A stretch of DNA of 64,000 bases, from positions 54,332,049 to 54,396,048 of the forward strand of contig NC_012870.2 of assembly GCF_000003195.3 (NCBI RefSeq), read 5' to 3'. A program made the position numbers and the translations under genes. Below, piece by piece: positions 30,924 to 64,000 of this stretch (positions are counted from its first letter, which is position 1; each line of letters opens with the position of its first letter). This stretch comes from Sorghum bicolor. Lineage: Eukaryota > Streptophyta > Magnoliopsida > Poales > Poaceae. Under the pieces are notes generated by a model. The model had not been told where the DNA came from and did no database searches. It saw nothing but the letters and a program-made list of their open reading frames with translations.

Positions 30924-32191
30924 TGTTGACGGTCCTTAATGCTCATATTTAACCATCAATTAATCATGGAAAAGGATCCAAATGCAACCAACACCCAAAC
31001 TTAGGGTTTTATCTGACAGAATTCCACGAGTTTTGGTGTTTGTCTATTTCTACAGGGGGTTATCAGGAAATACGGAAGAAAGGCCCACACGTCGGGTTTA
31101 CATAGAGATATTAACATGCCGCATAATTTTCTATCATCTAGAAGACTCCAGAAGCCACGGGAACGAAGCGGAGGCCGAGAGGGCTCAAGCACAGGGCGCC
31201 CGTCCGAGTCCTGAGGGCGCCCGCCCTGCTACAGTGCTCAATCAGAGTCCAATTCGGGGACAACGCTCCACCGACCTAAAGGATCAAGGAAAACCGTGCG
31301 ATTAATGTCGGTTTGATCCAACGGCCCATATTCACTTGAAGGGACTATAAAACCAGACCCCCTGGCCCCTAGAGATCATACCTCTTCTACAGAATCAAAG
31401 TTAGGGTTTCAATTCTTCATCCAAGTAGAGAGGATCCCTAGTTCTTCTAGTTCTACCTCTAGTTCATCTAGTTCTAGTTCTAGTTCATCTAGTTCTAGTT
31501 CTAGTTCTAGTTCTAGTTAGTTCTAGTTGTAATCTAGAAAATAGGGAGAGAGAAGAGGAGAGTGGAGGAGGAGCCGGATCTGTCGGATCTTCCTCAACAT
31601 TGTACTTTTACAACAACTGGTTCGTCCTTCATCGTTCTCCAAGTTCTTCAATTCATAATTCCTGAGTTCTTTAATTACTTTTATTTACATTCAAGTTATT
31701 TATTGGATTCCCGCTTGCATCAAGTGCTCTAGTGTTTATAACGCTAGAGTAGTAATTAATAGATTAGACGTGGTGTTTAGTCTTGCAATTACCTGGAATT
31801 GCACCCAATCATGCGGATTGTTGTGGTAGCCTTAGGGTAGTGACAGCCCTAACGGTCGACGTATTCCACCTCGTTCGGATCGGTGTTTGTAGGACCGTAG
31901 TCAGACCTTCCTAGCCCCCTTCTCATCTCTTTCTGTGGTTAGTGCTCTGATGTCCCGATATAGATAATCTTGAAGTAATTCTTGATTCTTAGATCAACTA
32001 GAGAACTCTCAAGAAACTTCCTCTCTTCCCACCAAAAACAATTATATAGTTATCCTTGGGCGATCTTGATTCTCAATTAGTACACTCACGTTCCCTGTGG
32101 AAAATCGATACTCTGGAATACTCCCGGGTGAAGGCTACATCGGTATCCGTGCGCTTGCGGATTTTTCTATTTGCGTTTAAAATACCCAACA
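30924..32191 (+). repeat. 5' LTR of the non-autonomous element
   Basis: Starts TGTTGACGG and ends ACCCAACA. An 'actataaaacc' promoter box lies near 31344. A CTAGTT-based short tandem array follows at about 31435-31520. Confidence 0.93.
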
Positions 32192-32195
32192 AGCT

Positions 32196-32219
32196 TTCTG
32201 GCGCCGTTGCCGGGGAACG
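32196..32219 (+). promoter_or_regulatory. primer-binding-like site
   Basis: TGGCGCCGTTGCCGGGGAAC starts a few bases after the 5' LTR. This is the usual position of the tRNA primer site, and the same motif is widespread in plant Ty3/gypsy elements. I do not assign the tRNA. Confidence 0.6.
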
Positions 32220-34008
32220 GTAGCTGTGCTAGTTTCGAACCAAGTCGTCCGTGTATCCTTTTTCTTTTCCTTTTTTACCACACTCACCTTATCATTTTCA
32301 CCATACCACATGGATTTCACTCTAAGCATTAATGAGCATGGAATTTATTTCATAGCCACTTCATTTACTCCATGCTCATATGCAACATCTTCCCAATCCA
32401 TTGGTTTTTCCAACATCACCACATTCGAGATCTCCAACCCCCTCATTCTTTCTATTTATAAAAACTTTAAAATGGCGGTTGTCGATGCATATGTCTATAT
32501 TAAATATTGCAGATCTCGTTGTGTTGATCTTTATATAGGTCAGCGTTGGAGGGGAAACCACTTCGCCGACATAAATTAATGGTTTCCCAAGGACAAGCTT
32601 AGTGTCCTAAAACAAGCACTGATCGGATTGTAACATGAGCTTTTAATTATTTGCAACATTACCTTGTGTATTGAGCATATAAGGATAATTTTAAAAAAAT
32701 TCCTTCGGGTATTCTTGTCACTAACCTTTTCTAGGATTGGAGCAAGAAGATCGGATGAATAACAAGCACAAGGTATGTCCAACCAATCATCATACAACAT
32801 TGAATTAAATTCATCCAAACTTGAATTTTGCAAAATTCAAGCATGGGGGAGTACTATACATAAAATCATCCATTGCCATGTTGCTACGTTGGTTGTCTCT
32901 ACCTTTGAGACATGCTCAATGTGTTAAATACTAATCACATTACTTCATCTCCACTTGAGTAGATCTCTATAAATGCTCTCATGCTACCTTTATTTGCTTT
33001 AGTATATGTCTAGGTTTGGAGTAGTTTCATTTATCTCTTAATTAAGCATGGTGCTTAGTTTAGGGCTGATGATCTTACTTCCAAGGGAGTTTAAATTAAG
33101 CATGATGCTTAGGTTAAAATGCCCTCCTAAATCAAATTAGACATGGTGTCTAGGTTGATTTTTGAGCCGATAGTATGCTATAGTAGATATTGGATATTTT
33201 GTTGGACTAACCCCTACAGGAAAACTTTCAATATCGACCTGGGAAGTCCTGAGACAAACTCACATTGGAGACAAAGAGAGAGGTACATGAAGTTTAACAA
33301 TTTACACAAGGAAGGCATAGCTCACAAGAGATGATCCGTGGAGGGTGCCACAAACACGATGCACAACCGCTGAGAAAGGAAAGCTTCCACAAGGAGATAT
33401 CATACCATCACTCTTCAAGTAAGGTAAGATCTTAAGGTACTTGACTATCACTTTTATAAGCTTCTCCTTGGTTCTAGCGTTCACATGAATAAAAGAGACA
33501 AACATGTATGATTTACAACTCTAGATTAACCAACCCAATCGGTTCAACATGTTTAGTCCTTCCACCTTTGTGATCCCACAATCCTAATCATATGAGCTAA
33601 AATGTTGCACACGCAATCTTTGGAAGATATATATAAAAAGAAAACATAAGCATAGATAGATTATCTTTCCATTAGGTTGAGCGATCTGATCTGACAAATG
33701 CTTTAAATGCTACACTCATAATCTTATTATCTATCAACTTTGTATTGCTCCCTATGCTTAAGGTTAGAGAAGAACAAATACACTTTTGGTTCTGTTGGTG
33801 TTTTCCACCAACAGGGCCCATGCACTTGATCTCTGCCTTGTCTATGAGCAGGTACACTTCTAGCGAAATATGAAGGACTTTTACAACTCCCAGACTACAC
33901 CAAGTGAAGAACCTAGATCTACAAGCACAAACACACTAGAGATACTGGTTACTCAGGCAATCACTGCCCTGAGATGCTTGAGGACGTAACTACTAGAGTA
34001 ACCCCATT
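32220..34008 (+). other. decayed gag region of the non-autonomous element
   Basis: No gag domain survives as an open frame. A fragment reading 'YSGNHCPEMLED' near 33950 resembles the end of a CCHC zinc knuckle. It lies directly before the protease-like frame, where gag would end. The rest of the interval shows nothing I can name. Confidence 0.4.
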
Positions 34009-35174
34009 GTGGAAGTAATTACTGACCTTCTGCCGGTCAAGAGAGACAATCCAGGACGCCCCGTCATCCCGATCTCCATCGGCATGGTGGACTTCCTAGA
34101 AGCACTCTACAACTTTGGCTCCAGTGTCAACATTATGCCCAGGGTACTCTATGGAAAATTCTTTACACATCCTTTCCTAGAAACAACCATGTGTTTGCAG
34201 CTTGTAGATCAGACACTAAGTTTCCCAAAGGGAATATTGAAGAACCTCTACGTCCGAGTTGGTACCTTATACGCTCCAGCAGACTTCGTGGTGATAGAGA
34301 CTGATACTGATGAGAGGGCATCCATCATCCTAGGGAGGCCATTCCTGAACACCTCGGGAGCTGTCATCTACGCTAGTGCTGCTAAAATCCATTTCTACAT
34401 CAAGGGGAGGAAGGAGACGTTTTCCTTCAAGAACAAGACTACACAAATCTCAGAGCAATCCCGACATGAACCAAGGAAGAGGACCAACATGAGGAATAGA
34501 AACAAGCAAATGTGGACTGAGTCAGCTAAGATGGTCACTGCAGCTCAAGAAGGTCAAGATCGTCAACTCAAGTCACCTTTCTTGATCAAGAAGGACGACC
34601 TTGGTGTTCCAAGCATCAAGTGCACAATCAACAGATATTCTTTTTAGAAGACACTCTATGACACCGGATCTGACATCAACATAATGGCCGCAGTCACTTA
34701 TCAGCTCCTGTATGGAACCATGCCCCTACAACCAACATACATTCAACTCCAGATGATTTTAAGGTTATTGACATGGGAGAAGACTAGTACATTCCACCCA
34801 TTACCATTGGGAGACTGTTCCTCAGTACCGTTAAAGCAATCATCTACATTGGAACCGGAGAAGTCCACATGCACTTCCCCTCAGAGAAGGTACGCCGCTA
34901 TTTCACTGACCCTAACTATATAGTTGAAGACCCTAAGCAGGTCAGGACAAGAAGAAGACGACGCAACCGCAACCAGAGGAGGCAAATCATCAAGGACGGA
35001 TGGGCAGACTACGAAGGAGAAGTAGTAAGATCTGAAGACATACAGCTTGAACAGAACTGTTCTGAGGAGACCGTAGCACCGAGTCAGGTGTGGAGAGAGA
35101 AGATAGTTATACATGAAGAGTATGCGCCGCCGGAACCACCGACTACGCCATCCAGCAAATCCCAGGACGACTGA
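34009..35174 (+). pseudogene. two tandem retroviral-type aspartic protease-like domains
   Basis: The first domain (34009-34440) has 'SSVNIMPRVLYG' and later 'ASIILGRPFLNTSGA', the flap and ILGRPFL signatures of gypsy proteases. Its catalytic Asp position is Asn (AAC at 34111). In the same frame, after a TAG at 34645, a second domain starts with an intact 'DTGSDINIM' (Asp codon 34660-34662). It is then broken by a deletion or frameshift around 34755-34840 and resumes in another frame with 'MHFPSEKVRRYF' and an Arg-rich tail ending at 35174. Tandem protease-like domains in one polyprotein without RT are unusual. Whether the family is still expressed cannot be told from this copy. Confidence 0.7.
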
Positions 35175-37030
35175 GAAAATGGAGAGTCCCGTTCGGAGAA
35201 CTTAAAAACACCGAACGCCTTGCCAAGAGTTCCACAAAGCTTTGTTGTCTATTTGAGCTACACAGAATTCAAGGATCAAAGAAAACTAGCAGACGAAAGA
35301 CATCCTAATCGCTGTCAGAGTGCTGCCGACATTCAAATACACCTCCGCCAGCTTCTAGCTACATCAGAAGAAATTACGCCAAAATCCAGCTTGGGGGAGA
35401 GCACCCCCATTTATCCAGCTAAGTATTCTACTCACGTTTATACTTTACTCTAATAATAAAATGATGCATAATCATAAAAACCCAAATAAAGATTTTGTGC
35501 TTATATATATATATCTTTGCTTAGCTTGCTAAATAAATAAATAAATAAAGTTTGCTATGAACCCTCATGATAAGCTCTCACATGGAAATGATGAATAGTT
35601 GCTCTACCATGATTAGTTCTAAAAATTGAAATCTCTCTTAAGTTTAGGCATGACTATTATTAATTAAGATTTGCTCTGAACCTGAACTTGTGGGAAGAGT
35701 ACTTGATCTAAACTCTAAGTCGTTAACGGATACGATATGGGAAGGTTGAGCTGCTGTTTATCTGTTCCTAGAGATGCTAGAATTCTGGAGAATTTTATCT
35801 TTGAAAATCTTTAAAATGTTGCATGATGAGTTCCTGTATGATGAGAGTTTAAAATCCTACCACAGCTATATATACATGCTTGCTAGACTTTGAACCATAC
35901 ATTTACTTTGTACTGCTTATGAGCATTGAGTGTGGTCAAGCTGTGTAGACCCTTAGGAGCTTGTCATGTGGTTAAAATCAAGATTCACTTGCACATTCAC
36001 TCACACATGCTGCTTCTACTCAGGAAGTACCATCCACATATATCCATTTCCATCTCCAGAACCACCCAAAAATATTCTACTCCTAATCCGGGAGAGAATA
36101 GCCAAAAATATTTCTGTTTTTCCCCTGTGAAATAAATGCTCAAGTTATCATGTTACTACCACTTGCTATATTATCTCATGAGATGAGTGCTCTAAAAAAA
36201 GAGAGAAAAAAAGTATACGAGGAAATAAAAAGGGGCAAGTGCCCGGAACCTCGAAAGAAAGAAAAAGTGAGACGAGAGGTAAAAATAGACAAGTGTCCGA
36301 CAGTAGAATTAGGGGTACAAGATACCCACCTGAGAGAAAAGAAAAAGAAAATATAGAGCATCTCATTCTCCTCAAAAAGTTTCAAAAGAGCAAGAAAGGT
36401 ATGTATCCCCTCAAAAGAGCAAAAGTAGAATTAGACTTTCACCATTGTTATCACCATCATACACCATTCATTCGCCACACATGCACATCTTGATTTGACT
36501 TATTGACTTGTTCTTCTGGATCCATGGTTTGACTATGTAATAAATGTCTTGTAAGTATGTATTAGCTGTCTCCCATCTATGAGCTCCAGATATCAAAAGC
36601 CTTATTAGAGTAGGGTGAGAGAGAAAGCAATGCCACTATGTCTTATACCACAAATACCACATACTTTGAGAGAAGGCATATACCATTACTACCTTGGTAA
36701 GGATCCAGAAATACCACAAAAGAGAGACTAGAGAGAGTCATACAAGGAATCTCTGAGTTTTATTTGAAAATCTGCAAAAACTCCAGAGCTATAGTTGATC
36801 AAGAACATGAGACATGGCGCTTGATTAGACCGTTCTATCTTTTAACTGCTCAAGACACAAGTGACGGTTGCAAGCCCCACGGTGGAAGGTAAAATGAGTA
36901 AGTTTAAATCTTAACAGTTTACCCTAACCCAGAAATGATATCTTGTTTGAACGCATGTGTATCTTTAAGGCATGAAACCATTGCAGAAGCTCTTGAGTTC
37001 ATCTTTGCTCAGGGACGAGCAAAGGTTAAG
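35175..37030 (+). other. non-coding 3' interior of the non-autonomous element
   Basis: No gene. A 'agcttgggggag' purine motif at about 35390 is repeated just before the 3' LTR (37030-37042). A purine-rich block lies at 36185-36420. A-rich stretches such as (AAAT)n occur at 35530. Confidence 0.5.
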
Positions 37031-37042
37031 CTTGGGGGAGCT
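37030..37042 (+). promoter_or_regulatory. polypurine tract
   Basis: 'gcttgggggagct' directly abuts the 3' LTR at 37043, the position where plus-strand priming begins. Confidence 0.65.
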
Positions 37043-38331
37043 TGTTGACGGTCCTTAATGATCATATTTAACCATCAATTAATCATGGAAAAGGATCCAA
37101 ATGCAACCAACACCCAAACTTAGGGTTTTATCTGACAGAATTCCATGAGTTTTGGTGTTTGTCTATTTCTGTAGGGGGTTATCAGGAAATACGGAAGAAA
37201 GGCCCACACGTCGGGTTTACATAGAGATATTAACATGCCGCGCAATTGTCTATCATCTAGAAGACTCCAGAAGCCACAGGAACGAAGCGGAGGCCGAGAG
37301 GGCTCAAGCACAGGGCGCCCGTCCTAGTCCTGAGGGCGCCCGCCCTGCTATAGTGCTCAATCAGAGCAATTCGGGGACAACGCTCCACCGACCTAAAGGA
37401 TCAAGGAAAACCATGCGATTAATGTCGGTTTGATCCAACGGCCCATGTTCACTTGAAGGGACTATAAAACCAGATCCCCTGGCCCCTAGAGATCATACCT
37501 CTTCTACAGAATCAAAGTTAGGGTTTCAATTCTTCAACCAAGTAGAGAGGATCCCTCTAGTTCTTCTAGTTCTACCTCTAGTTCATATAGTTCTAGTTCT
37601 AGTTCATCTAGTTCTAGTTCTAGTTCTAGTTCCTCTAGTTCTAGTTCTAGTTCTAGTTAGTTCTAGTTGTAATCTAGAAAATAGGGAGAGAGAAGAGGAG
37701 AGCGGAGGAGGAGCCGGATCTGTCGGATCTTCCTCAACATTGTACTTTTGCAGCAACTGGTTCGTCCTTCATCGTTCTCTAGGTTCTTCAATTCATAATT
37801 CCTATATTCTTTAATTACTTTTATTTACATTCAAGTTATTTATTGGATTCCCGCTTGCATCAAGTGCTCTAGTCTTTATAACGCTAGAGTAGTAATTAAT
37901 AGATTAGACGTGGTGTTTAGTCTTGCAATTACCTGGAATTGCACCCAATCATGTGGATTGTTGTGGTAGCCTTAGGGTAGTGACAGCCCTAACGGTCGAC
38001 GTATTCCACCTCGTTCGGATCGGTGTTTGTAGGACCGTAGTCAGACCTTCCTAGCCCCCTTCTCATCTCTTTCTGTGGTTAGTGCTCTGATGTCCCGATA
38101 TAGATAATCTTGAAGTAATTCTTGATTCTTAGATCAACTAGAGAACTCTCAGGAAACTTCCTCTCTTCCCACCAAAAACAATTATATAGTTATCCTTGGG
38201 CGATCTTGATTATCAATTAGTACACTCACGTTCCCTGTGAAAAATCGATACTCTGGAATACTCCCGGGTGAAGGCTATATCGGTATCCGTGCGCTTGCAG
38301 ATTTTTCTGTTTGCGTTTAAAATACCCAACA
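37043..38331 (+). repeat. 3' LTR of the non-autonomous element
   Basis: Near-identical to 30924-32191. It is 21 bp longer, mainly because the CTAGTT short tandem array (about 37555-37660) has gained units. Confidence 0.93.
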
Positions 38332-39728: not shown

Positions 39729-40454
39729 TGTTGACACCGTTTTTGGACACGTATCTTTGGATACGCACCTGGAATTAATGAAGTGTAAATCGGCAGGTGG
39801 AGAGATGGTGGCTAGTCTATAGGAGAGTTGCCGATGAGGGTTGATGCCGATGGAAAAACAGCCGAATATGACCAAGTCCAGGAGTGGTGATGCGTTCATG
39901 CCGATGGCCAGTGCTGATGGTTGCCGATGGCGGTGAAAGGCAGTCTGCCGATGGTCATAGAGGAAGATGCGGGGGTAGCCGATTGGCTCATAACAGTGTA
40001 CCGATCGGTTGTGGAGGACAGTTTAATGTTTTCCTTAGTTATTAGAGTTCATTTTGTATACGGATTCCGTTTAATTTGGAATTCGAGTTCTAGTCGTGTC
40101 TGGTTGTAGTTCTTTGGGACAGGGTATAAATCTAGATCCCGTGGCAATGTAACGAGACATATATCAACCAATCAATCACAAGTTTTTACACATATTCTAG
40201 CATCTACTTTTCGACGACTTCGTCATATTTCCGTTTACTACGAGTTCTTAGGAATTCGTCGAGTCAAACTCGGCGTGTTCTCGAGTTCCGCGTGAGCACC
40301 TCTTGGCCGTGATATCCTGGCGCATCGCTGTTGTCGGGACCAAAGTGTTCGAGTTACCACCTTTGTCGATTGCAATGTCAAATCGGCTGGCACGCCTTAA
40401 CGTTTGAATCGGGTATTAGCCCTTTGTGTTTGCAGATTAGCTTTTGCACCAACA
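39729..40454 (+). repeat. 5' LTR of the Tat-type element
   Basis: The TATA box (TATAAAT) is at 40125-40131. U3 carries seven GCCGAT/ATCGGC hexamers within 39798-39985, in front of the promoter. Confidence 0.95.
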
Positions 40455-40485
40455 CATATTTTGGCACACCCGGTGGGACAGGAGA
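40455..40485 (+). promoter_or_regulatory. probable primer-binding region
   Basis: 'ttggcacacccggtgggac' begins a few bases after the LTR. Related elements carry similar 'TGGCRC..CCGGTGGGAC' sites here. The tRNA is not assigned. Confidence 0.5.
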
Positions 40486-40503
40486 TTCAAGATCAAGATC
40501 AAC

Positions 40504-43500
40504 ATGTCGAACACCGATTTCGACTTGGAGAACGTCATCCCCGTGACGGAAGCCAATCTTAGAGATGAGCCGAAGCAAGCTATGGCAAAAGCCATGGAGG
40601 ACTACAAGCAGCTATGCTTGAAATCCTTCAGTATCAATAGGAGTGGCGAGGTAATCCAGAAGGAAGCATTGCCGATGCCTCGGCAAATTACTTTTGAAGC
40701 CAATCCTGGTAAACTTCAAGACATGGTTGACAGTGCTATTAACCGTGCCTTGATCAATTAGTCTGGTGTACTGTCCAACACGGTTTTCAACGCTGTGGCT
40801 AGAACTTTCAAAGAAGGGCAAGTACCACCATCTTATGTGGGTCCTGCCTATCATCAGCCTGGGTCATCGGTGGTTACGGCTCCATCGGCTACTACAGCCG
40901 TTGCGGGTGCAGAAGTTACTTCCCCTCCAAGCACATTAGGGATGACTAATGCACAATCTACACCGATGACAACTAATCCATCAGCATCGGATGGGCAAAT
41001 TAAACTCGCTATAGATCTATTAGCGTCAGCGATGTCAGGGACTGTTCCTCCCAACTGGTGGGGTTATGGTATGCCCCCAGAATTGATGGCAAAAGGCCCT
41101 GGAACATCTCAGGTGGCTGACATGACAGGCAAGGCTCCTATGGCATCGGCACCTCCAAGCTCAGCGATGACTCAGAATCCCCAGTATTCTACAACTACTA
41201 CTGCAAGACCTTTCACTGGGAATTCTCAAACACCAACGTTCCAGTTGTCTAATGCATCAGCAGATCCAATGCCGACGCAGCAAAGGTTTATGACACAGCC
41301 AGGGTGTGTCAGTTCAATGATGATGCCCACTTACCAGTCATCGGCAGGACCCACGCCGATGAATGTTAATGGTGGATGGACAGGGCAGTTTGTCTTTCCA
41401 CAGATGCCTTAGCAGAATCATCAAGCTGTGGGATTTCAACAAGGACCAGTCCAACCTGGATTTCAGAACCAAAGGTTGATCAATCAGCCGATGAATCTAG
41501 GCCGGCAACTTGGTGGTCAGTAGACAATGGTTAATCCAATGTTCCATGGAGATCGTGCACCTCAGAGACATGTGGAGGCTTATTAGCAGGTGCCAGATCC
41601 ACAACCACCTCATCGGCAAGATGCCGATGCTTATTGAGCTGATAAGATAGCTGAAGTAATGAGAGACCAATTTGGGATAAAACCCAAAGTCAACACTTAC
41701 TCTTATCGGACACCGTATCCTCCTGCATATGACTTAATGCCACTTCCAAATTGGTACAAGGTACCAGATTTCACCAAGTTTTCTGGGCAGGATGATACAT
41801 CAACTATGGAGCATGTTAACAGGTTCATCATCCAGTGTGGAGAAGCTGCTAACAGAGATGAGTTAAGGGTTCGCCTATTCTCATCATCCTTGTCTCGATC
41901 GGCTTTTACTTGGTTTATTTCGCTACCTCCCAACTCAGTTATTACTTGGGCTGATCTAGAGAAACAATTCCATAAATACTTCTTTTTTGGAGTTCATGAG
42001 AAGAAGATTACCGATTTAGTCAGGCTAAAACAACGCAATAATGAATTGGTTGAATGTTTTGTGCAAAGGTTGCGAGAGGTTAAGAATAAGTGCTATAGTC
42101 TAGTTCTGGACGATCGGCAGCTAGCCGATTTGGCTTTCCAGGGGTTGTTGCCACATATCAGAGACAAATATGCTTCTCAAGAGTTCGAAAGTCTAAGTCA
42201 TTTGGTGCAGAGGATTTCTGACCAAGATATTAAAACTTTTGAACCTAAGAGAGCATGGAATAAAAAGGTGTCATTTGTCGATGAGGCAGCAAGCTCAGAT
42301 TCTGATGAAGAACCAGTCATCGGCTTGGCAGAATGGGTGAAGAATAAGAAGCCGATGTCTTGTCCTTTTGGGCATAAGAAACCAGAGAAGTTTGCATTTG
42401 ATATCACCAAAGCCGATAGGATATTTGACTTTTTACTTCAAGAAGGGCAAATTAAGTTTTCACCCAATCATGTGATTCCATCGGCAGAGGAATTGAAGAA
42501 GATGAAATACTGCAAGTGGCATAATGCAACATCTCACAGCACAAATGAGTGCAAGGTTTTCAGGCAATAGCTGCAATCGGCTATAGAATCTGGGAGAATT
42601 AAATTTGATAATTCCAAAGCTCAGAAGCCGATGAAGATCGATCAGCATCCTTTCCCTACAAATATGTTGGATGCTAAGGGAAAAACTAAAGTCTTGACGT
42701 CAGAAGTAGCTGAAAGAAGCGCATCGGTGGATCCTCAACATCAGATTACTGCCGATGATGCTAAAGGCAAGGGTTTGATTCAGGAAGGAACCAGTTCAGG
42801 AAGGCCTCCCCGATCTGGCATTGTGATAACTTATAGAAGGCATCAGGAGACCTGGCAGCAACATGAAGATCGGTATCGGCGCCAACAAGAGGATCGTCAT
42901 TAGGAAGAGGAAAGACGCCGACAAGAGTGGAATCGGCATAAAGATCATTGGAACTGCCCGTTCTTTATCCACTGTTGGGAACAAGACATCAAATTTCCCA
43001 ATGTTAGAGACTGCCCTGAGTGCAATGATTATGATCGGTATGATAGACCTAATCGGCAGTATCAAAACAATGATCGGCGATTTAATGGGCCAATTAGGGG
43101 AGAGCTTCAGTTCATGATCGGCTGGGGGGCAGGCTCAGTGTACATGACAGACTTGGTTTTCGTGTCGGGTATTTTCCCAGAAATCAAGAGGAGCTTGAAG
43201 AGATGGCAGATGCGCGAGTTCCCGATGAGTTCATATTTTGCAGGAATGCTAATACCTATCAAATGGAGTCAAGGGGAGATCGTCGTCAATCGGCAAGACA
43301 GCCACAACTTCCTCCATGGTGTCTAGAGGGGTTGACTAGGACACAGAAAAGAAGGCTACAGCGCGAAAGACGAGAAGAGCTGAGCAAAGGTGAGAATTCT
43401 GCTAAGTCTGAAGATCGGCAACAGCCAGATCCCAAGGGGAAAGGGCCATCGGCAGATGTTAATATGGTGTTTATGTTGCCGATGGAGTTCCTTGCGCCTG

Positions 43501-43676
43501 CCAGTGATGATGAGATGGATTTTTCTGACCAAATAGCTCAGTTGGCTCTAGATCTGATGACGGCTGTCTTTGAAAAGCCTGCCGACAATGAAAGACAGCA
43601 TCTTAAAGCTCTGTTTGTAAGGGGACGAGATTTGAAAGACGGCATCTTAAAGTTCCTTGTAAGCCTTGAGGGTTGA
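40504..43676 (+). pseudogene. gag of the Tat-type element, with stops and a frameshift
   Basis: Structural protein that would form the virus-like particle. The ATG at 40504 opens a frame that stays readable to about 43095 apart from stops at 40759, 41410, 41521, 41584, 42568, 42901 (all TAG) and 41635 (TGA). The N-terminal part is Pro/Ser/Thr/Met-rich. The retrotransposon gag domain lies at about 41750-42240 ('FTWFISLPPNSVITWADLEKQF'). A Cys/His cluster 'CKWHNATSHSTNEC' at about 42510 is a zinc-knuckle relative. A frameshift near 43095 moves the C-terminal part into the frame 43203-43676, and a short partial duplication near 43610-43665 moves the downstream frame again. Not functional in this copy. 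Confidence 0.85.
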
Positions 43677-44169
43677 TGGGCAGCCGATGACCAAGATACT
43701 TGTTGATGGTGGGGCTGCTATCAATATTATGCCATATGCAGTCTATCAGAAGCTTGGGAAAGGAGATCAAGATTTGACCAAGACAGATACGATGCTGAAG
43801 GACTTTGAAGGGAATGTGTCTCCGGTTAAGGGGGCAATATGCATCGATTTGACCATCGGCAGCAAAACCTTTCCGACAACTTTCTTCGTTATCAGTGGAA
43901 AGGGTGCTTATAATCTGCTATTGGGGAGAGATTGGATCCATGCCAATTGTTGCATCCCGTCTACAATGCACCAATGTTTGGTTCAGTGGGTAGGTGACAA
44001 GATTGAGATTGTCCCAGGAGATTCTTCATATGTCATTGCATCGGCAGAGGCAGATACTTATGAGAGGACCAGGTGCATCTCAGGAGAAATTTGGGAGATG
44101 GATTTCCTCAAGGTTGCCAATTACGAAATTCCACCGATCCAAGCAGTCGGTTCTAATGAGGAGTTTTAA
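43666..44169 (+). pseudogene. aspartic protease region of the Tat-type element
   Basis: 'VDGGAAINIMP' at about 43695 is the active-site loop of this clade, with Gly where other families have Ser/Thr. 'YNLLLGRDWIH' at about 43912 is the second conserved block. The frame ends with a TAA at 44167 that overlaps the next frame's ATG at 44169. The protease would mature the polyprotein. Confidence 0.8.
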
Positions 44170-47100
44170 TGGATAGGTTCGCCGATGATGGAAAATTAGG
44201 CCAAGGGTTTACATCGGCCGATGATTTAGTAGATGTAGATAGAGGTAATGGTGATAGGCCAATGCCTACTTTTATTAGTGCTAAGTTAAATTCTGAGTGT
44301 AAGCAATAGTTAATCGATTTGCTAAAGGAATATAAAGATTGCTTTGCTTGGGATTATACCGAGATGCCTAGTTTGGACCGATCTATTGTTGAACATCGGT
44401 TGCCTATCAAATCTGGATTTCGGCCACATCAGCAGCCAGCTCGCTGATGTAATCCTAATATTCTTCCTGATATTAAGGCTGAAATAACTAAACTTATCGA
44501 AGCTAAATTTATTCGATAGTGTCGGTATGCCGAGTGGATTTCCAATGTCGTTCCAGTTTACAAGAAAAATGGGAAGCTTCGAGTTTGCATTGATTTCAGG
44601 AATCTTAACAAGGCTACGCCGATGGATAGTTATCCAATGCCAGTTGCCGATTTGCTAGTTGATACTGCCGCTGGACATCGGATCATAAGCTTTATGGATG
44701 ACAATGCAGGATATAATCAGATATTCATGGCTGAAGAAGATATTTCAAAGACCGCATTTAGATGTCCTAGTCATGTTGGGCTGTTTGAATGGATAGTCAT
44801 GACCTTTGGCTTAAAAAATGCTGGTGCTATTTATCAGAGGGCTATAAATTTTATCTTTCATGAGTTCATCGGCAAGCTGGTAGAAATTTACATCGATGAT
44901 GTAGTGGTTAAGTCTGGGGATTTCACAAAGCATCTTGCCGATCTGCGAAAGGTGTTGGAGTGCACAAGGAAACATGGTTTAAAGATGAATCCTAACAAGT
45001 GCGCGTTCGGTGTATCGGCAGGGCAATTTCTTGGTTTCATGGTGCATTAGAGAGGAATTGAAATTAGTAGGAGATCTATCGATGCCATCAACAAAATAGT
45101 TGCTCCTACCAACAAAACGGAGCTCCAGTCTCCGATCGGCAAGATAAATTTTATCAGGCGATTTATTTCCAATTTGTCTGGTAAAATTCGTGCTTTCAGT
45201 CCTTTACTTAAATTGAAAGCCGATCAAGAGTTTGTGTGGGGAAAAGAGCAACAATCAGCCTTGGATGAAATCAAGAATTATTTAACAAATCCTCCAGTCC
45301 TGATTCCACGTCAGCAAGGAAGGCCTTTCAAATTATATTTGTCTACCGATGGAATGGTCATCGATTCAGCTTTGATTCAAGAATTTGAATGGAAGGAGCG
45401 TGTGATTTATTATTTAAGTAGAAGGCTGATTGATGCTGAGACCAGGTATTCAGCGATTGAAAAATTATTTTTATGCTTATACTTTTCATGCATTAAGTTG
45501 AGACACTATTTGCTATCGGCCGAATGCACTGTTATATGCAAAGATGATGTAGTCCGATACATGCTGTCTATGCCGATTATGAGTGGTACAATCGGCAAAT
45601 GGATTTTGGCGCTGTCAGAATTCGATCTGCGTTACGAATCGGCTAAGGCGGTTAAAGGACAGATCATGGCCGATTTTGTGACTCAACATTGCAGTGTAGT
45701 GGAGACTTTAGAAATTGTTCCTTGGACGTTCTTCTTTGATGGATCTACGTGTGACCGGGGGGCAGGAATCGACATAGTACTAATTTCCCCTCAGGGAAGG
45801 AAGTATGAGTTCTCCTTGCCGATTGTCGCCACGTCAACGAATAATCAAGCTGAATATCAAGCTTTGATCAAAGGGTTGGAATTGTTAAAAGAGGTTCGTG
45901 CTGATGCTGTTGAAATCTTCGGTGATTCTATGCTTGTCATAAATCAATTGGCTGGAATTTATGAATGACGAAGCGAGGTCCTGATAACCTATTATGAAAG
46001 AAGTGTGCAACTATTGAAGGAGTTCAAGGATTTCCGATTAGAGCATGTTCCTGGATTACATAATGAGGAGGCTAATCGGTTGGCTCAGCATGCCTCGGGA
46101 TATCAACCCATATTTAACACGTTATCGGTGATCGGTGTCGATGATTGGAGAAAGGAGATCATTGATTATTTAAAAGATCCATCTAAAAAGGTTGAGAGGC
46201 GTATCAGGTTCCAAGCTACCAAGTATGTGCTCCTTGGGAATGAACTGTACTATCGAACAATAGATGGAGTTCTTCTCAAATGCTTGGGCAATGATGAAGC
46301 TAAAAGTTTGATGGGTGAAATCCATGAAGGAGTGTGTGGAGCACATAAGTCGGCTTTTAAGATGAAATGGATGATTAGGAGGAATGGGTATTATTGGTCA
46401 ACTATACTCGAGGATTGTTTTAAATATTTCAAAGGATGTCAAGGATGTCAGAAATTTGGCAATATTCAAAGGGCACCCACATCGGCTATGAATCCTATTA
46501 TTAAACCTTAGCCGTTCTGGGGATGGGCTATTGACTTAATTGGCTAGATTTATCCACCATCAAGCAAAGGGCATAAGTTCATCTTAGTTGCCACTGATTA
46601 TTTCACTAAGTGGGTTGAAGCTATTCCTTTGAAGAAAGTCACATCGGCTAATATGATTGATTTTGTGAAGGAGCATATTGTTTACCGATTTGGTATTCCT
46701 CAAACAATTACTACCGATCAGGGTACCATGTTTACATCAGAAGAATTTGATGAATTTGCAATAGGTATGAGAATTAAAGTGTTGAATTCTTCTCCTTATT
46801 ATGCTCAAGCCAATGGGCAGGTCGAGGCGTCTAACAAAGGAATTATTGAACTCATCAAACGAAAGATTGAAGAAAATCCTAGGAGGTGGCATGCATTGTT
46901 GAATGAAGCTTTATGGTCATATCGGATGGCGTGTCATGGGTCGACCAAAGTTTCACCTTATCAGTTGGTGTATGGGCACGATGCAGTACTACCATGGGAA
47001 ATTAAGACTTGGTCTAGGCGACTATCTTTTCAAGACCAGTTGGCTGCCGATGACTATGCTACTTTGATGAAAGACGAGTTAGACGATTTAGCAGGGCATC

Positions 47101-47402
47101 GGCTGAGGGCTTTGATAAGTATAGAAGAAAATAAAAAGAGAGTTGCTAAGTGGTATGATAAAAAGGTAAAGGCTAAGGAGTTTGCCGATGGAGATTTGGT
47201 GTGGAAACTGATCTTACCAATTGGGACTAAAAGTTTGAAATTTGGGAAGTGGTCTCCTAATTGGGAGGGTCCTTATCGGATAAATCGGTCTGCTCCCGGT
47301 AATGCTTATATTTTGGAAACTCTTGAAGGAGTTGAATTTCCCAGAGCATTAAATGGAAAATATTTAAAGAAGTATTACCCAAGCATATGGGTCGATGCAT
47401 AA
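44169..47402 (+). pseudogene. pol: reverse transcriptase, RNase H, second RNase H, integrase
   Basis: A single reading frame runs 3.2 kb with stops at 44307, 44517, 45048, 46509, 46545 (TAG) and 44445, 45966 (TGA), then its natural TAA at 47400. The RT has 'FMDDNAGYNQI' (about 44690) and the catalytic 'YIDDVVV' (about 44890). The first RNase H spans about 45320-45520. A second, plant-type RNase H begins 'WTFFFDGSTCDRGAG' (about 45722). The integrase has an HHCC finger (about 46320-46460), the DDE core ('VATDYFTKW', 'TTDQGTMF') and a C-terminal 'NWEGPYRI' module with no chromodomain. This domain set fits Tat-lineage Ty3/gypsy. The stops make this copy dead unless read through. Confidence 0.92.
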
Positions 47403-47412
47403 CAGTTTAAGT

Positions 47413-47499
47413 GCCGATAATACTCCTATCGGCTGGATTAAAATGTATCTGGGACTAAGTATGATGTTTTAAAAAGATGCCGATAACAGTCCTATCGGC
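47413..47499. terminator. twin GCCGATA hairpins between convergent genes
   Basis: Arms GCCGATA (47413-47419) and TATCGGC (47427-47433) with a 7-nt loop are followed 66 bp later by the same arms at 47479-47485 and 47493-47499, also with a 7-nt loop. They lie between the pol stop (47402) and the stop of the antisense gene (47559). A role in 3' end formation or insulation of the two converging transcripts is inferred from position only. Confidence 0.4.
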
Positions 47500-47558
47500 T
47501 AGACCAAAATAGTCAGCAGTTTCTAAAGGCAGAACAAAACATGCCGCCGATGAGGAGC

Positions 47559-50500
47559 TCATACATTTAGCAGGGCTTGGATAGCCGATATAGCGCGCAG
47601 ACAAATTTGATCTGCTTCTTCTATCTCTTTGATGTCCTCATCGGCAGAGCCCTCCACTGGCTTCAGCTTCTTCTTCATCTGCAGTGCCTTGCGGGCTTGA
47701 ATGTTTCGCTCTTGTTCGAGGGTCTTAATCATTTCGGGCAGCTGACTTTCTTCTTGCTGGGCTTGAGAGAGGGCCTCTTCTACTTGCTTAAGCTCTGCCA
47801 GTAAGGCTTCCCTTTTTGCCGATAGATCGGAGATCTTCTGCCTTAATGTCTCCCCTGAGGACTGCATGATGCCGATGCTCTGGTGCTTCTCATCGGCAAG
47901 GCATTTCACTTGCATTACTTCCTCTGAGAGTTGGGCATGGGTGGCTCTATCGGCAAGGCATTGAGTGGCCTTTTGGTACTGGAGCTGGTGGCTCTCCAGG
48001 TGTGTATCCTTGAAAAGGATCTCTTCGGCATCGGCAGAGATTTGACCCCTAAGAGCTTTAAACAGAGCCTTGGCTGGATCGGAATCATCGATCAGTTGAG
48101 CAGTGTCCTGATGAAGCAGGGATAACAAATCTTCTAGCTTTGCTCTGATTTCTGCCGATGAAATCCCTACTGCTTGAGAAGAGCTTGCTTCCTTGCCTTC
48201 ATCATCGAAAATTTCAATGGCAAAGGAAAACAAACTATCCGAAGAGTCTTGTTCCTGGAGAAGAATGAGATAAGTTATTTGGTGATCGAGTATTCGTGAT
48301 ATAAAGGATAGAAATCAGATGACTTACTTGTTTCAGAGCTATTTCTTGCCTCTGACTGATTGAGGCCGATGGTACCACAGGTTGATCGGCCGGAGTTGCC
48401 GATGGAATAATGTCAGCTAAAAAAAGGATATAATCGTTATAAAGTGAAAAATAGATCCGTCGACAATAATTTTATGGACAATACTTTACCTTGAGGGGGT
48501 GCGGTGCTTATCTGAATTGAGGAGACTACCGATGCTATGATTGAACCCACTGGATCGGCAGTCTGCTCACGTACATCGGCTGATGTCTCTTCTGGCTGAG
48601 GTGCTTCTTGCGGCTGAGGTGGAGACAGTGCTTGCTGTGTCTGAACTTCTGGCAAAGAAGAGGACGATTCCACATGAATCGGTGACCCTGGAGGAGGAGG
48701 AGGAGGCACTGCTGTCTTCTGACGCTTCGCTTATGACTTAGTACTTTTGGGGCCTTTTCTCTTGACTTTGCTAGACTGAGGGGCATCGGCACTCGTCTTG
48801 GTACTTCTGGTCTTTGCCGATTTGCCAGTTTGCTGATGCAACAACAAAAGTTTCATAAGTATAAATGTAACAGAGTATTGATGAGATTTTGGATGGAACA
48901 GTACCGATGAAGTTCCCATGGCAGCCGATGTATCCTGAAAAGGCTGTGTAAGTATAGAATGGAATCGGTATAAATTGAAGAAGTCAAGAATTTACCTTGA
49001 AAGCTTGTGCCAAAGCAGCAGCAGCGACCGATGGAGATGTCTTAGCTCGTTTGGTGGTGATCTTCTTGAAGCGCATGTTCCGGTGCATTAGAGCCGCCAG
49101 GCTTGGTGCGTTGTTGCCGATCAGGGAGATCGGGCCTGATGGAAGGAGTTCGATCGGCCTTCCGCTCCTACTGACTGTCGGTGGTGTATCGTCAACCTGT
49201 GTAAAACGGAGAAAGTAAGTTGCCGATAAGAATAAAAGTAATAGAAGAATTGAGGCATCGGTTGAAGACTTACAGTGTTCTCGGGGACTTTGTATTTGGA
49301 GTCGATCATACCACGGTATGCAAGGGCCGATCTGCAGAACAGGTGCTCTTTCCATTCCTCCCACTATTGTTTGTATACCTGAGTAATGAAGAGAGCGGGA
49401 TCCAAGCCGATAAATCAATGTCTGATGTATCGGCGTTTGGTGGGAGTTGAGCTATTCTAATCCACTCAAGGCCGCTAGTTATGGTCTCCCTTGGCTTCAC
49501 CACATCGGCGTAGCAGAGTGCAATTGGCAGCTGTCCAAAGGCTAATTCACGAGCCAAAGCCGATGGATTATAAAACTCATAGGTGAGATTGGAAGTTTTC
49601 CCACTGACGAAGAAGTTTACTGGTATAGCTCTCGGAGTGATAATTGCCATCATCAAATCATGGTCCTTGTTGAGGGCATTATCAAAGGGGTAGAAAGTGA
49701 GTGGGAATCTGGTCTCTATGTCCTCATAGGGCATCCATGCCCGCTGGTCTTTGGTCGAACCTTCATAAAGAGTCTGGATGAATCGGCTGACCTGGTCTTC
49801 ATTCCCACCAGTACCAGGTAAAACTATGGCAGCTTCACCATAATTCAAAGGGGGGCGAGTTGCCGATTCTTCATCATCCAATTCGTAATCTTCGGTTATA
49901 TCTGTGGGAAAGCGTTGCGAGAAGAGATTGAATCCGAGGCGCTTATGCATATGGACACTGAGCCACATGTTGATAAACCACCATGGTCCTCCTAAGTTGT
50001 CGATGGGTTGGCCTAGCAAAAGCTTCTCGGTCACTTGATGAAGAAGGTGATAAGCAGAGCCTAACAGGTATCGGCCAAGAGGAAAACGACCACCGCTAGC
50101 TAATCTTTCTGCTACCAATAAGTAAACAGAAGTTGGTCCTGTCGATCGACCGCAGAATACAAACTTATCGAGCCACATATTCAGAAAGATGGCATGTTCC
50201 CTTTCCCCAATAGCCCCTGTTTTTCGGTACTTCTGAATGTACCCAGACCAACCGCCGATGCTGCGAGTTTCTACCTTGGAACTAGGCTCATTATCGAACA
50301 GATCACTGTTATCGGCAGTTGATATATCTAAGCCGGTGAGCATGAGTACATCGGCAAGAGTAGGCGAAGCGAGACCATGGCCGAATACAAAAGCATTAAG
50401 GGTATCTAACCAAAAGTATGAAGCGGCTATCAGCAGCGACTCGTTCCTCTCCATATTGGCAATAGACAGTCTAATACACTGGTCCAATTTCCGCTCACCC

Positions 50501-50898
50501 CATTGGACTTCATTTGAATTGCCGATTCTCAGGAACCAGTCTTTCCATCCTTTGGTGGGGCTGGGCCAGGAACGGAAAGCATCTTTCCACAGATCTAAGG
50601 AGAAATTTTTGGCTCTAAAAGGGATCCTATTTGTCTCTGCATTTATCAGATCGGTGGGATCTGGGTTTCCCAATGGACCGAGGCACTGAAAGTGAGGTTG
50701 ATCGGTAGGAATCACGATCTTATCGGCCAATTCCTAAAGGGTTTGGAGGATGAAGGAACAAAAAGGAGATAGAGAAAAGAAAAAAAGAGGAAAAAGGGTG
50801 CTCAGTAAATAGATTTGCAGATGAACAAGAGTACAACCAAAGTATAAAAAGAAGGGGGATGGTAAGTTGACCTCAGGGACGACGAAGTTGATGGCCAT
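47559..50898 (-). pseudogene. captured plant-mobile-domain gene, antisense within the retrotransposon, seven exons
   Basis: Exons on the minus strand: 50898-50872, 50733-49274, 49196-48996, 48934-48905, 48832-48490, 48416-48328, 48254-47559. All introns are GT-AG, and phases agree throughout apart from a net 1-nt loss in exon 2 (near 49400). Exon 1 encodes 'MAINFVVPE'. Exon 2 is the plant mobile domain (aminotransferase-like PMD, MAIN/MAIL1 relatives), with 'FSLDLWKDAFRSWPSP', 'LTLADVLMLTGLD'-type and 'GGPWWFINMWLSVHMHKRL' blocks. The middle exons are low-complexity Pro/Ser/Lys. The last exon (231 codons) is a Glu/Gln/Lys-rich coiled coil. The intact protein would be about 950 aa. This copy also has a stop near 49357 and one near 48733. 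PMD proteins act in nuclear silencing and growth. PMD genes inside retroelements are known, so capture itself is not new; function here is unknown. Confidence 0.8.
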
Positions 50899-51051
50899 TT
50901 CTTCCTAAAGGAAGGAAGAGATCGAAGACTCAGAAGATTGTGAAGGAGATCCTTGCCGGAGTTCTTGAAGTTCTCGAACAGTGCCGCCGCCAAGGGGGTG
51001 GATTTGAGGCTGTAGAATGACAAGATGGAGGAAGAGTACCGGAGAAGGAGG

Positions 51052-51059
51052 TATTTATA
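51052..51059 (-). promoter_or_regulatory. TATA box of the antisense gene
   Basis: On the minus strand TATAAATA is followed by a CT-rich leader of about 150 nt and the ATG at 50898. The captured gene therefore has its own promoter, separate from the LTR promoters. Confidence 0.7.
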
Positions 51060-51109
51060 GGACAAAAAGGGCAGGGGCAAATCTGACTTATCTCTTTGCC
51101 GCATCCGTG

Positions 51110-51440
51110 AAATCTGAGGGTGTTCAGGTGGATATGGTAACTGTTCGCACGATAATCAAGGGATTGTGCAGGTGATTTGACAGCAAGCGGTCGTTTTAAA
51201 GATATCTTACTGTGTAAGATCGCCTAGTCGGTTTATTGGCAGTCTTCTCTAACGGTAATATTGCCGATGAGCGCATTATGGGGAGATTCAGTTCGAGAAG
51301 TTGGGAAATTCGAGGTACATGCTGTAAGACTGAACTGAGGTTGTTAAGATTTGGTGATTAATTACCAATTAGAAGGAGTAATTGTGGAAAGGCGTCATTC
51401 CTGAGGAGAATTTCAGAGCATTAATGATTTTATACTCCGA
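51110..51440. other. non-coding stretch between the antisense promoter and the 3' LTR
   Basis: No open frame of note. It holds a GCCGAT hexamer at about 51263 and upstream sequence for the antisense promoter. Confidence 0.5.
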
Positions 51441-51454
51441 AATTGGGGGGCATG
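51441..51454 (+). promoter_or_regulatory. polypurine tract of the Tat-type element
   Basis: 'aattggggggcatg' directly precedes the 3' LTR start at 51455. Confidence 0.6.
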
Positions 51455-52181
51455 TGTTGACACCGTTTTTGGACACGTATCTTTGGATACGCACTTGGAA
51501 TTAATGAAGTGTAAATTGGCAGGTGGAGAGATGGTGGCTAGTCTACAGGAGAGTTGCCGATGAGGGTTGATGCCGATGGAAAAACAGCCGAATATGACCA
51601 AGCCCAGAAGTGGTGATGCGTTCATGCCGATGGCCAGTGCTGATGGTTGCCGATGGCGGTGAAAGGCGGTCTGCCGATGGTCATAGAGGAAGATGCGGGG
51701 GTAGCCGATTGGCTCATAACAGTGTACCGATCGGTTGTGGAGGACAGTTTAATGTTTTCCTTAGTTATTAGAGTTCGTTTTGTATACGAATTCTGTTTAA
51801 TTTGGAATTTGAGTTCTAGTCGTGTCTGGTTGTAGTTCTTTGCGACATGATATAAATCTAGATCCCGTGGCAATGTAACGAGACATATATCAATCAATCA
51901 AACACAAGTTTTTACACATATTCTAGCATCTACTTTTCGACGACTTCGTCATATTTTCCTTTTACTACGAGTTCTTAGGAATTCGTCGAGTCAAACTCGG
52001 CGTGTTCTCGAGTTCCACGTGAGCACCTCTTGGCCGTGACATCCGGACGCATCGCTGTTGTCGGGACCAAAGTGTTCGAGTTACCACCTTTGTCGATTGC
52101 AAGGTCAAATCAGCTGGCACGCCTTAACGTTTGAATCGGGTATTAGCCCTTTGTGTTTGCAGATTAGCTTTTGCACCAACA
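51455..52181 (+). repeat. 3' LTR of the Tat-type element
   Basis: Near-identical to 39729-40454. By hand I see about 22 substitutions, of which about 16 are C/T or G/A changes, plus a 1-bp indel. The TATA box is at 51851-51857. Confidence 0.95.
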
Positions 52182-63832: not shown

Positions 63833-64000
63833 TGTTGACACCGTTTTTGAACACGTATCTTTGGATACACATCTGGAGTTAATGAAGTGTAGATCGACAG
63901 ATGGGACAATGGTGACTAGTCTACGGGGGAGTTGCCGATGAAGGTTGGTGCCGATGGGGAAACAACCGAATATGACCAAGTTCAGAAGTGATGATGTATT
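63833..64000 (+). mobile_element. start of another Tat-type LTR (runs off the window)
   Basis: TGTTGACACCGTTTTTG matches the start of the LTRs at 39729 and 51455, with clearly more divergence than those two have from each other. Two GCCGATG hexamers are present. The rest of the element lies beyond the window. Confidence 0.9.

What the first reader, a model, noticed from the sequence alone, without database searches (positions are those of the whole stretch)
39729..52181. The whole Tat-type element is saturated with the hexamer GCCGAT/ATCGGC
By hand I count about 110 copies on the two strands in 12.45 kb, often as TGCCGATG/CATCGGCA; a random sequence would give about 6. They occur in both LTRs, gag, pol, the antisense gene, its introns and the non-coding joints. 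In coding parts they fall in every phase and give different dipeptides (AlaAsp, ProMet, IleGly, SerAla, ArgGln/ArgHis), so a repeated peptide is not the cause. The neighbouring LTR element (30924-38331) lacks this bias. The selection seems to act on DNA or RNA: a binding site for an element-coded or host factor, a packaging signal, or a silencing-related mark.
Basis: seen in the sequence. Interest (0 to 1): 0.9.

Follow-up and report, generated by a model that had tools for sequence, protein, structure and literature searches.

The report
Retrotransposon saturated with a self-marking motif
A plant LTR retrotransposon carries about a hundred scattered copies of one six-letter DNA word that its lineage preserves, most likely as docking sites for a DNA-binding protein encoded by the element itself, which would let it recognise and protect its own copies.

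Summary
GCCGAT/ATCGGC occurs 103 times in 39729-52181; 300 dinucleotide shuffles gave mean 4.9, maximum 14. With ACCGAT there are 132 sites, 67+/65-. They lie in coding and non-coding DNA and are not peptide-driven: 65 in coding pieces against 12.9 after synonymous shuffling.

The motif is kept beyond shared descent. In 20 copies of the first 6 kb it is intact in 69% of cells, against 50% for CpG-matched hexamers; in eight loci of the antisense half, 68% against 36%; in one relative of 80% identity, 33/44 against 20/107. Synonymous positions are constrained too.

The element is Tat-type with an antisense plant-mobile-domain (PMD) gene. In fine structural alignment, two AlphaFold models of the PMD piece single out VANC21, the anti-silencing DNA-binding protein of Arabidopsis VANDAL21; Foldseek's own score is weak.

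Best reading: the motif is the dispersed binding site of the element's own PMD protein, a VANC-like self-recognition and probably anti-silencing system. Binding and function are inferred. Whether other PMD families carry other motifs could not be tested.

The parts
39729..52181 (.). Tat-type Ty3/gypsy element saturated with GCCGAT/ATCGGC (103) and ACCGAT/ATCGGT (29); 5-bp flanking repeat AAAAT
39729..40454 (+). 5' LTR (TG...CA); its first 282 bp, upstream of a TATAAA-like box near 40125, holds 9 RCCGAT sites, the remainder 1
40462..40479 (+). putative primer-binding site 7 nt inside the 5' LTR (TGGCACACCCGGTGGGAC); its tRNA match was not computed
   Evidence: sequence read
41638..42567 (+). 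gag open stretch (PF03732), 7 GCCGAT copies
43663..44166 (+). aspartic protease piece (PF13975), 3 GCCGAT copies
44520..45047 (+). reverse transcriptase piece (PF00078), 5 GCCGAT copies
45051..45965 (+). RNase H pieces, two kinds (PF17917/PF17919, then PF13456/PF00075), 8 GCCGAT copies; in-frame stops separate it from its neighbours in this copy
45969..47399 (+). integrase pieces (PF17921 at 45969-46508, PF00665 at 46548-47399), broken in this copy; 1 and 4 GCCGAT copies
47403..47560 (.). pol/antisense joint, 5 RCCGAT sites, including the clearest local duplication of sites (47413/47428 and 47479/47494)
47562..48314 (-). antisense gene, 3' open stretch (coiled-coil-like by the names given to some relatives); a homologous stretch follows the PMD in the Miscanthus protein P0020; 8 GCCGAT copies
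49309..50733 (-). antisense gene, main open stretch: plant mobile domain (PF10536, E 1.4e-16), 13 GCCGAT copies; predicted fold like VANC21
50734..51454 (.). motif-poor stretch upstream of the antisense open frame: 1 RCCGAT site, 7.5 expected at the internal rate
51455..52181 (+). 3' LTR; two GCCGAT sites present in the 5' LTR are lost here by C-to-T / G-to-A changes at their CpG

Best explanation
GCCGAT (more exactly RCCGAT, often T-RCCGAT-G) is a short double-stranded DNA recognition site that the active lineage of this Tat-type retrotransposon has accumulated one by one over its whole length, and that purifying selection keeps at DNA level on top of the protein code. The reader of the site is most likely the element's own antisense PMD protein, which would mark and coat the element's own copies, densest in the U3 promoter; the likeliest benefit is to counter host silencing of the full-length unit, as VANC21 does for VANDAL21. 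Shown: the excess, its independence of peptides, strand neutrality, a narrow constrained footprint, and maintenance across diverged copies. Inferred: binding by the PMD protein (supported by the predicted fold), and anti-silencing as the benefit (by analogy with VANC and with published speculation about transposon PMD proteins).
Confidence: 0.55

Rival explanations
1. The sites bind a host transcription or chromatin factor; the element gathered them to borrow host activation or to be placed in a given chromatin state, and the PMD gene is unrelated to them.
For: The densest stretch is the U3 promoter part of the LTR, 9 sites in 282 bp, as expected for enhancer sites; RCCGAT is one base away from the DRE core RCCGAC (recalled).
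Against: ACCGAC 4, GCCGAC 4, GCCGCC 4 in the element, so these AP2/ERF cores (recalled) are not notably enriched (GCCGAC expected 2.7). A promoter factor does not explain about 100 sites through gag, pol and the antisense gene kept at synonymous positions. Eighteen control segments hold few sites.
Confidence: 0.2
2. The sites bind another element-coded protein (integrase, gag nucleocapsid, or the product of the 3' antisense stretch) and mark own copies for targeting, target immunity or cDNA handling.
For: Dispersed, orientation-free sites over a whole unit resemble bacterial DNA uptake signals (recalled), where a DNA-handling step favours marked molecules; selection is seen across copies of the element.
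Against: The only element protein whose fold I tested was the PMD piece, and it matched a sequence-specific DNA-binding protein. An RNA-stage signal should be strand-biased; the counts are 67+/65-.
Confidence: 0.13
3. Neutral cause: copies of one ancestral repeat, codon or peptide bias, or a local mutation bias that makes GCCGAT.
For: One small local duplication at 47413-47494.
Against: Flanks are unrelated, no tandem array was reported inside the element, synonymous shuffles give 12.9 against 65, and CpG-containing hexamers should decay faster, yet motif copies are kept more than CpG-free hexamers (0.69 vs 0.56; 0.68 vs 0.44).
Confidence: 0.02

Closest known systems
VANC anti-silencing proteins of VANDAL (MULE) DNA transposons, Arabidopsis (PMC5735166 and PMC10398659, passages read; structure 9lnj known to me only by its PDB title)
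   Same: Element-coded non-structural protein; short family-specific motif in many copies, rare in other sequence; predicted fold of the PMD piece matches VANC21 over 292 of 362 residues.
   Different: LTR retrotransposon, not DNA transposon; PMD (PF10536) instead of DUF1985/DUF287; sites dispersed, both orientations, independent origins, coding DNA included; VANC sites are tandem, same orientation, mainly non-coding. Binding and demethylation are shown for VANC, not here.
PMD-A proteins of plant Gypsy elements and host MAIN/MAIL1 (PMC5418596, PMC7156037, PMC9899485, passages read)
   Same: PF10536 domain carried by Ty3/gypsy elements; counter-silencing by transposon PMD proteins is already suggested in print (PMC8616336 for transposons in general, PMC5418596 for PMDs captured by MULEs; passages).
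   Different: In the passages read no target DNA motif is reported for transposon PMD proteins; the host motif is CATGCAGTTT.
Retand/Tat elements with antisense ORFs (PMC11963269, PMC7264820, passages read)
   Same: Long pol-to-3'LTR region with antisense coding; dual RNase H (the latter a Tat feature per PMC9289625, passage).
   Different: Retand antisense ORFs carry TRP28 (PF04195) in 97% of clusters and about half have tandem repeats; here PMD, and no tandem array reported in the element.
Bacterial DNA uptake signal sequences (recalled)
   Same: Dispersed short word, both strands, inside genes, in preferred codon phases.
   Different: No uptake system here; the unit under selection is a transposable element.

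Membership tests
Tat lineage of Ty3/gypsy LTR retrotransposons | LTRs, flanking 5-bp repeat, gag, protease, RT, RNase H, integrase in Ty3 order | tested here: met
Tat lineage of Ty3/gypsy LTR retrotransposons | second RNase H domain and antisense ORF between pol and 3' LTR | tested here: met
   PF17917/PF17919 and then PF13456/PF00075 in 45051-45965; PF10536 on the minus strand at 49309-50733
Tat lineage of Ty3/gypsy LTR retrotransposons | placement by reverse transcriptase phylogeny | not tested
   no tree was built
Retand (Tat sublineage) | antisense TRP28 domain (PF04195) | tested here: not met
   not listed for the antisense pieces 49309-50733, 47562-48314, 48440-48730; other antisense frames were not scanned
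PMD protein family (PF10536) | Pfam gathering score | tested here: met
   61.1 bits, cut-off 34.9
VANC anti-silencing protein | DUF1985 / DUF287 domains | tested here: not met
   only PMD is listed for the window's piece at E<=5; neither is among the 25 families shown (a capped list) for 56 relatives
VANC anti-silencing protein | VANC21-like fold | tested here: met
VANC-type anti-silencing system | short motif enriched in the own family and rare elsewhere | tested here: met
   elsewhere means the rest of the window and 15 segments of fetched loci, not the whole genome
VANC-type anti-silencing system | motif in same-orientation tandem repeats of non-coding DNA | tested here: not met
VANC-type anti-silencing system | protein binds the motif and removes DNA methylation | not testable with these tools
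   needs EMSA, ChIP or DAP-seq, and methylomes
DREB/ERF transcription factor sites | RCCGAC or GCCGCC core (recalled) | tested here: not met
   ACCGAC 4, GCCGAC 4, GCCGCC 4 copies

The most novel reading that the evidence does not exclude
Retrotransposon-coded PMD proteins are sequence-specific DNA-binding factors of the VANC fold, and each PMD-bearing Tat lineage writes its own short DNA barcode over its whole genome, genes included, so that its protein recognises and de-silences only its own copies; the host silencing factors MAIN/MAIL1 would then be relatives of such a self-recognition protein.
Probability: 0.4. Interest if true: 0.93.

Novelty: new variant of a known kind. Interest (0 to 1): 0.87.

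Why it matters
The function of the plant mobile domain and of antisense genes of Tat retrotransposons is described as unknown in the passages read (PMC5418596, PMC7264820, PMC11963269). A lineage-preserved, whole-element DNA motif next to a PMD gene with a VANC21-like predicted fold gives both a directly testable target: mix the protein with the word and look for binding. If right, it would extend sequence-specific anti-silencing from DNA transposons to LTR retrotransposons, show a DNA code overlaid on protein code in a retroelement, and suggest how the host silencing proteins MAIN/MAIL1 relate to transposons.

Tried and rejected
Relatives in viral contigs, genome contigs and plasmids: none found. 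Full-text searches for the word with retrotransposons (listings only, none of the listed titles concerns this), for over-represented short motifs in anti-silencing and for uptake-signal-like drive gave no paper describing this; two searches returned no paper at all. PMD together with VANC or VANDAL (10 of 512 listed): passages of two listed papers (PMC6419827, PMC8616336) mention both and do not link their folds. A search for the VANC21 structure led only to a meeting report calling it unpublished (PMC8756742, passage).

Rejected: a repeated peptide or codon bias; tandem duplication; an RNA signal (strand balance); DRE/ERF sites. Dipeptide counts in relatives as a stand-in for the motif were not informative: Ala-Asp gains were not special. 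The protein-level compatibility test was run in three forms; the strictest is quoted. The neighbour element's GAACTAGA excess is its LTR tandem arrays. BFVD search of the PMD model: no match with E<=0.001. PDB by sequence: nothing for the profile at E<=1, one irrelevant hit at E 1.5 for the single sequence. Foldseek on the low-confidence model: no match with E<=0.001. In 18 other segments (103 kb, at least 1.2 kb each, three of them the rest of the window) none of the three top hexamers printed per segment approached the dispersed excess seen here.
Full report
What is there. The element at 39729-52181 has LTRs of about 727 bp that align 704/727, a flanking repeat AAAAT and a primer-binding-like site. 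In order it encodes gag, protease, reverse transcriptase, two kinds of RNase H and integrase. An antisense gene lies between pol and the 3' LTR, and its main open stretch is a plant mobile domain, PF10536. The sense frames of this copy are broken by stops. The window lies in a 709-Mb assembly on contig C1 of 80,884,392 bases; that length is, from recall, chromosome 1 of Sorghum bicolor.

The motif. GCCGAT/ATCGGC occurs 103 times; in 300 dinucleotide shuffles the mean was 4.9 and the maximum 14. ACCGAT adds 29, giving 132 RCCGAT sites, 67 on + and 65 on -, with a preference for T before and G after. Spacing is irregular (mean 91 bp, coefficient of variation 0.96) and 61 of 131 neighbouring pairs share a strand. 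Flanks of different sites are no more alike (0.259) than random places (0.253), so sites mostly arose separately; the clearest exception is a small duplication at 47413-47494. The U3 part of the LTR is densest (9 sites in 282 bp), and the 721 bp upstream of the antisense frame nearly empty (1, expected 7.5). These two comparisons were chosen after looking, so their Poisson values are only descriptive.

Not a peptide. In 13 open pieces that I took as coding (8.6 kb) there are 65 copies; exchanging synonymous codons within each piece gives 12.9 on average and at most 23 in 500 trials. Of 31 Ala-Asp pairs 20 are spelled GCCGAT, while Ala is GCC at 19% elsewhere; of 37 Ser-Ala pairs 21 use TCG, which makes up 17 of 191 other Ser codons. 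Density is 7.6 per kb in coding and 9.8 in the other parts.

Maintained in relatives. A 1-kb LTR/gag query listed 41 places in the genome, a lower bound; one is the window copy itself and one its own 3' LTR, and the others are mostly 86-92% identical. I compared 20 other copies over the first 6 kb. Motif hexamers are intact in 69% of cells (43 of 53 sites, those with at least 8 copies aligned), hexamers with a CG at the same place in 50%, CpG-free hexamers in 56%; 0 of 5000 resamplings of CpG hexamers reach the motif value. In the antisense half, 12 stretches were fetched and 8 matched: 68% against 36% and 44%, again 0 of 5000. The most diverged relative, L036 at about 80% identity, keeps 33 of 44 motifs, 20 of 107 CpG hexamers and 1007 of 3661 CpG-free hexamers; L028 keeps 30/47 against 55/155, L027 22/25 against 51/108. 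Copies also carry the motif at places where the window lacks it: 18 positions in the first 6 kb and 14 in the antisense half, some in many copies, so sites turn over. Across the 29 of 32 loci with alignments, codons that keep their amino acid and first two bases keep the third base in 1044 of 1127 cells inside motifs, against a codon-matched 0.786 outside.

Footprint. Around the sites the A and T of the motif are 98% unchanged; the four G/C positions are 89, 93, 91 and 94%; flanking positions lie between 79 and 93%, the highest being the base just after the motif; CpG bases outside motifs are 79% unchanged. So the first and third positions are no better than flanks, but their losses are mainly transitions: at the four G/C positions 310 of 367 changes (gaps counted) are G-to-A or C-to-T. 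That fits deamination of methylated cytosine after insertion plus tolerance of A at position 1. In L036 the second, fifth and sixth positions are 44/44. Between this element's own two LTRs 2 of 8 motif sites differ, both by such transitions, and 10 of 48 CpG differ: after insertion the motif is not specially spared, as expected if selection acts on the active lineage. Cells share descent, so the resampling was over sites, not copies.

Protein-level view in other species. Among the 120 best homologues listed by each of three searches (133, 649 and 655 hits), residues under motifs in the antisense gene stay compatible with the motif more often than same-phase controls in relatives of 60-75% identity: PMD 0.79 against 0.48 (3 of 2000), 3' stretch 0.91 against 0.52 (4 of 2000). 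Above 75% identity the excess is weak (PMD 69 and 118 of 2000, 3' stretch 464 and 409 of 2000). In 35-60% relatives the PMD shows none (0.16 against 0.22), and gag shows none at any level. This suggests, without proving, that the motif is older than this family within a grass PMD lineage and absent or different beyond it.

Reading and limits. The firm result is a selected, dispersed, DNA-level short site (my confidence about 0.97). That the element's own PMD protein reads it, as a self-mark, I put at 0.55, the scored statement; anti-silencing as the benefit is less certain, about 0.45. It works like a VANC system but is not filed as one: site layout and domain content differ. The key comparison, other PMD families and their words, stayed undone because the genome server did not answer.

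Noticed in passing
63833-63996: Start of a second, related LTR (86% identical over 164 bp) running off the window's right edge; it keeps 2 of the 3 motif sites of that stretch.
   Followed up: partly
31438-31528 and 37556-37668: The neighbouring LTR element carries tandem arrays built on TTCTAG/GAACTAGA near both ends; this explains its most frequent hexamers.
   Followed up: partly
50734-51454: Motif-poor 721-bp stretch upstream of the antisense PMD frame, in contrast with the motif-dense U3 beyond it; might be the antisense promoter region.
   Followed up: no
L036 (C7, 20820178-20825127): An inverted relative of about 80% identity beside another copy keeps the motif density (58 RCCGAT in 4950 bp) although the part of its PMD region that was read is only about 71% identical to the window's.
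   Followed up: partly
L028 (C4, from 35430877): One copy has a second relative (82%) beginning about 1.2 kb inside the stretch, suggesting nested insertion within the family.
   Followed up: no
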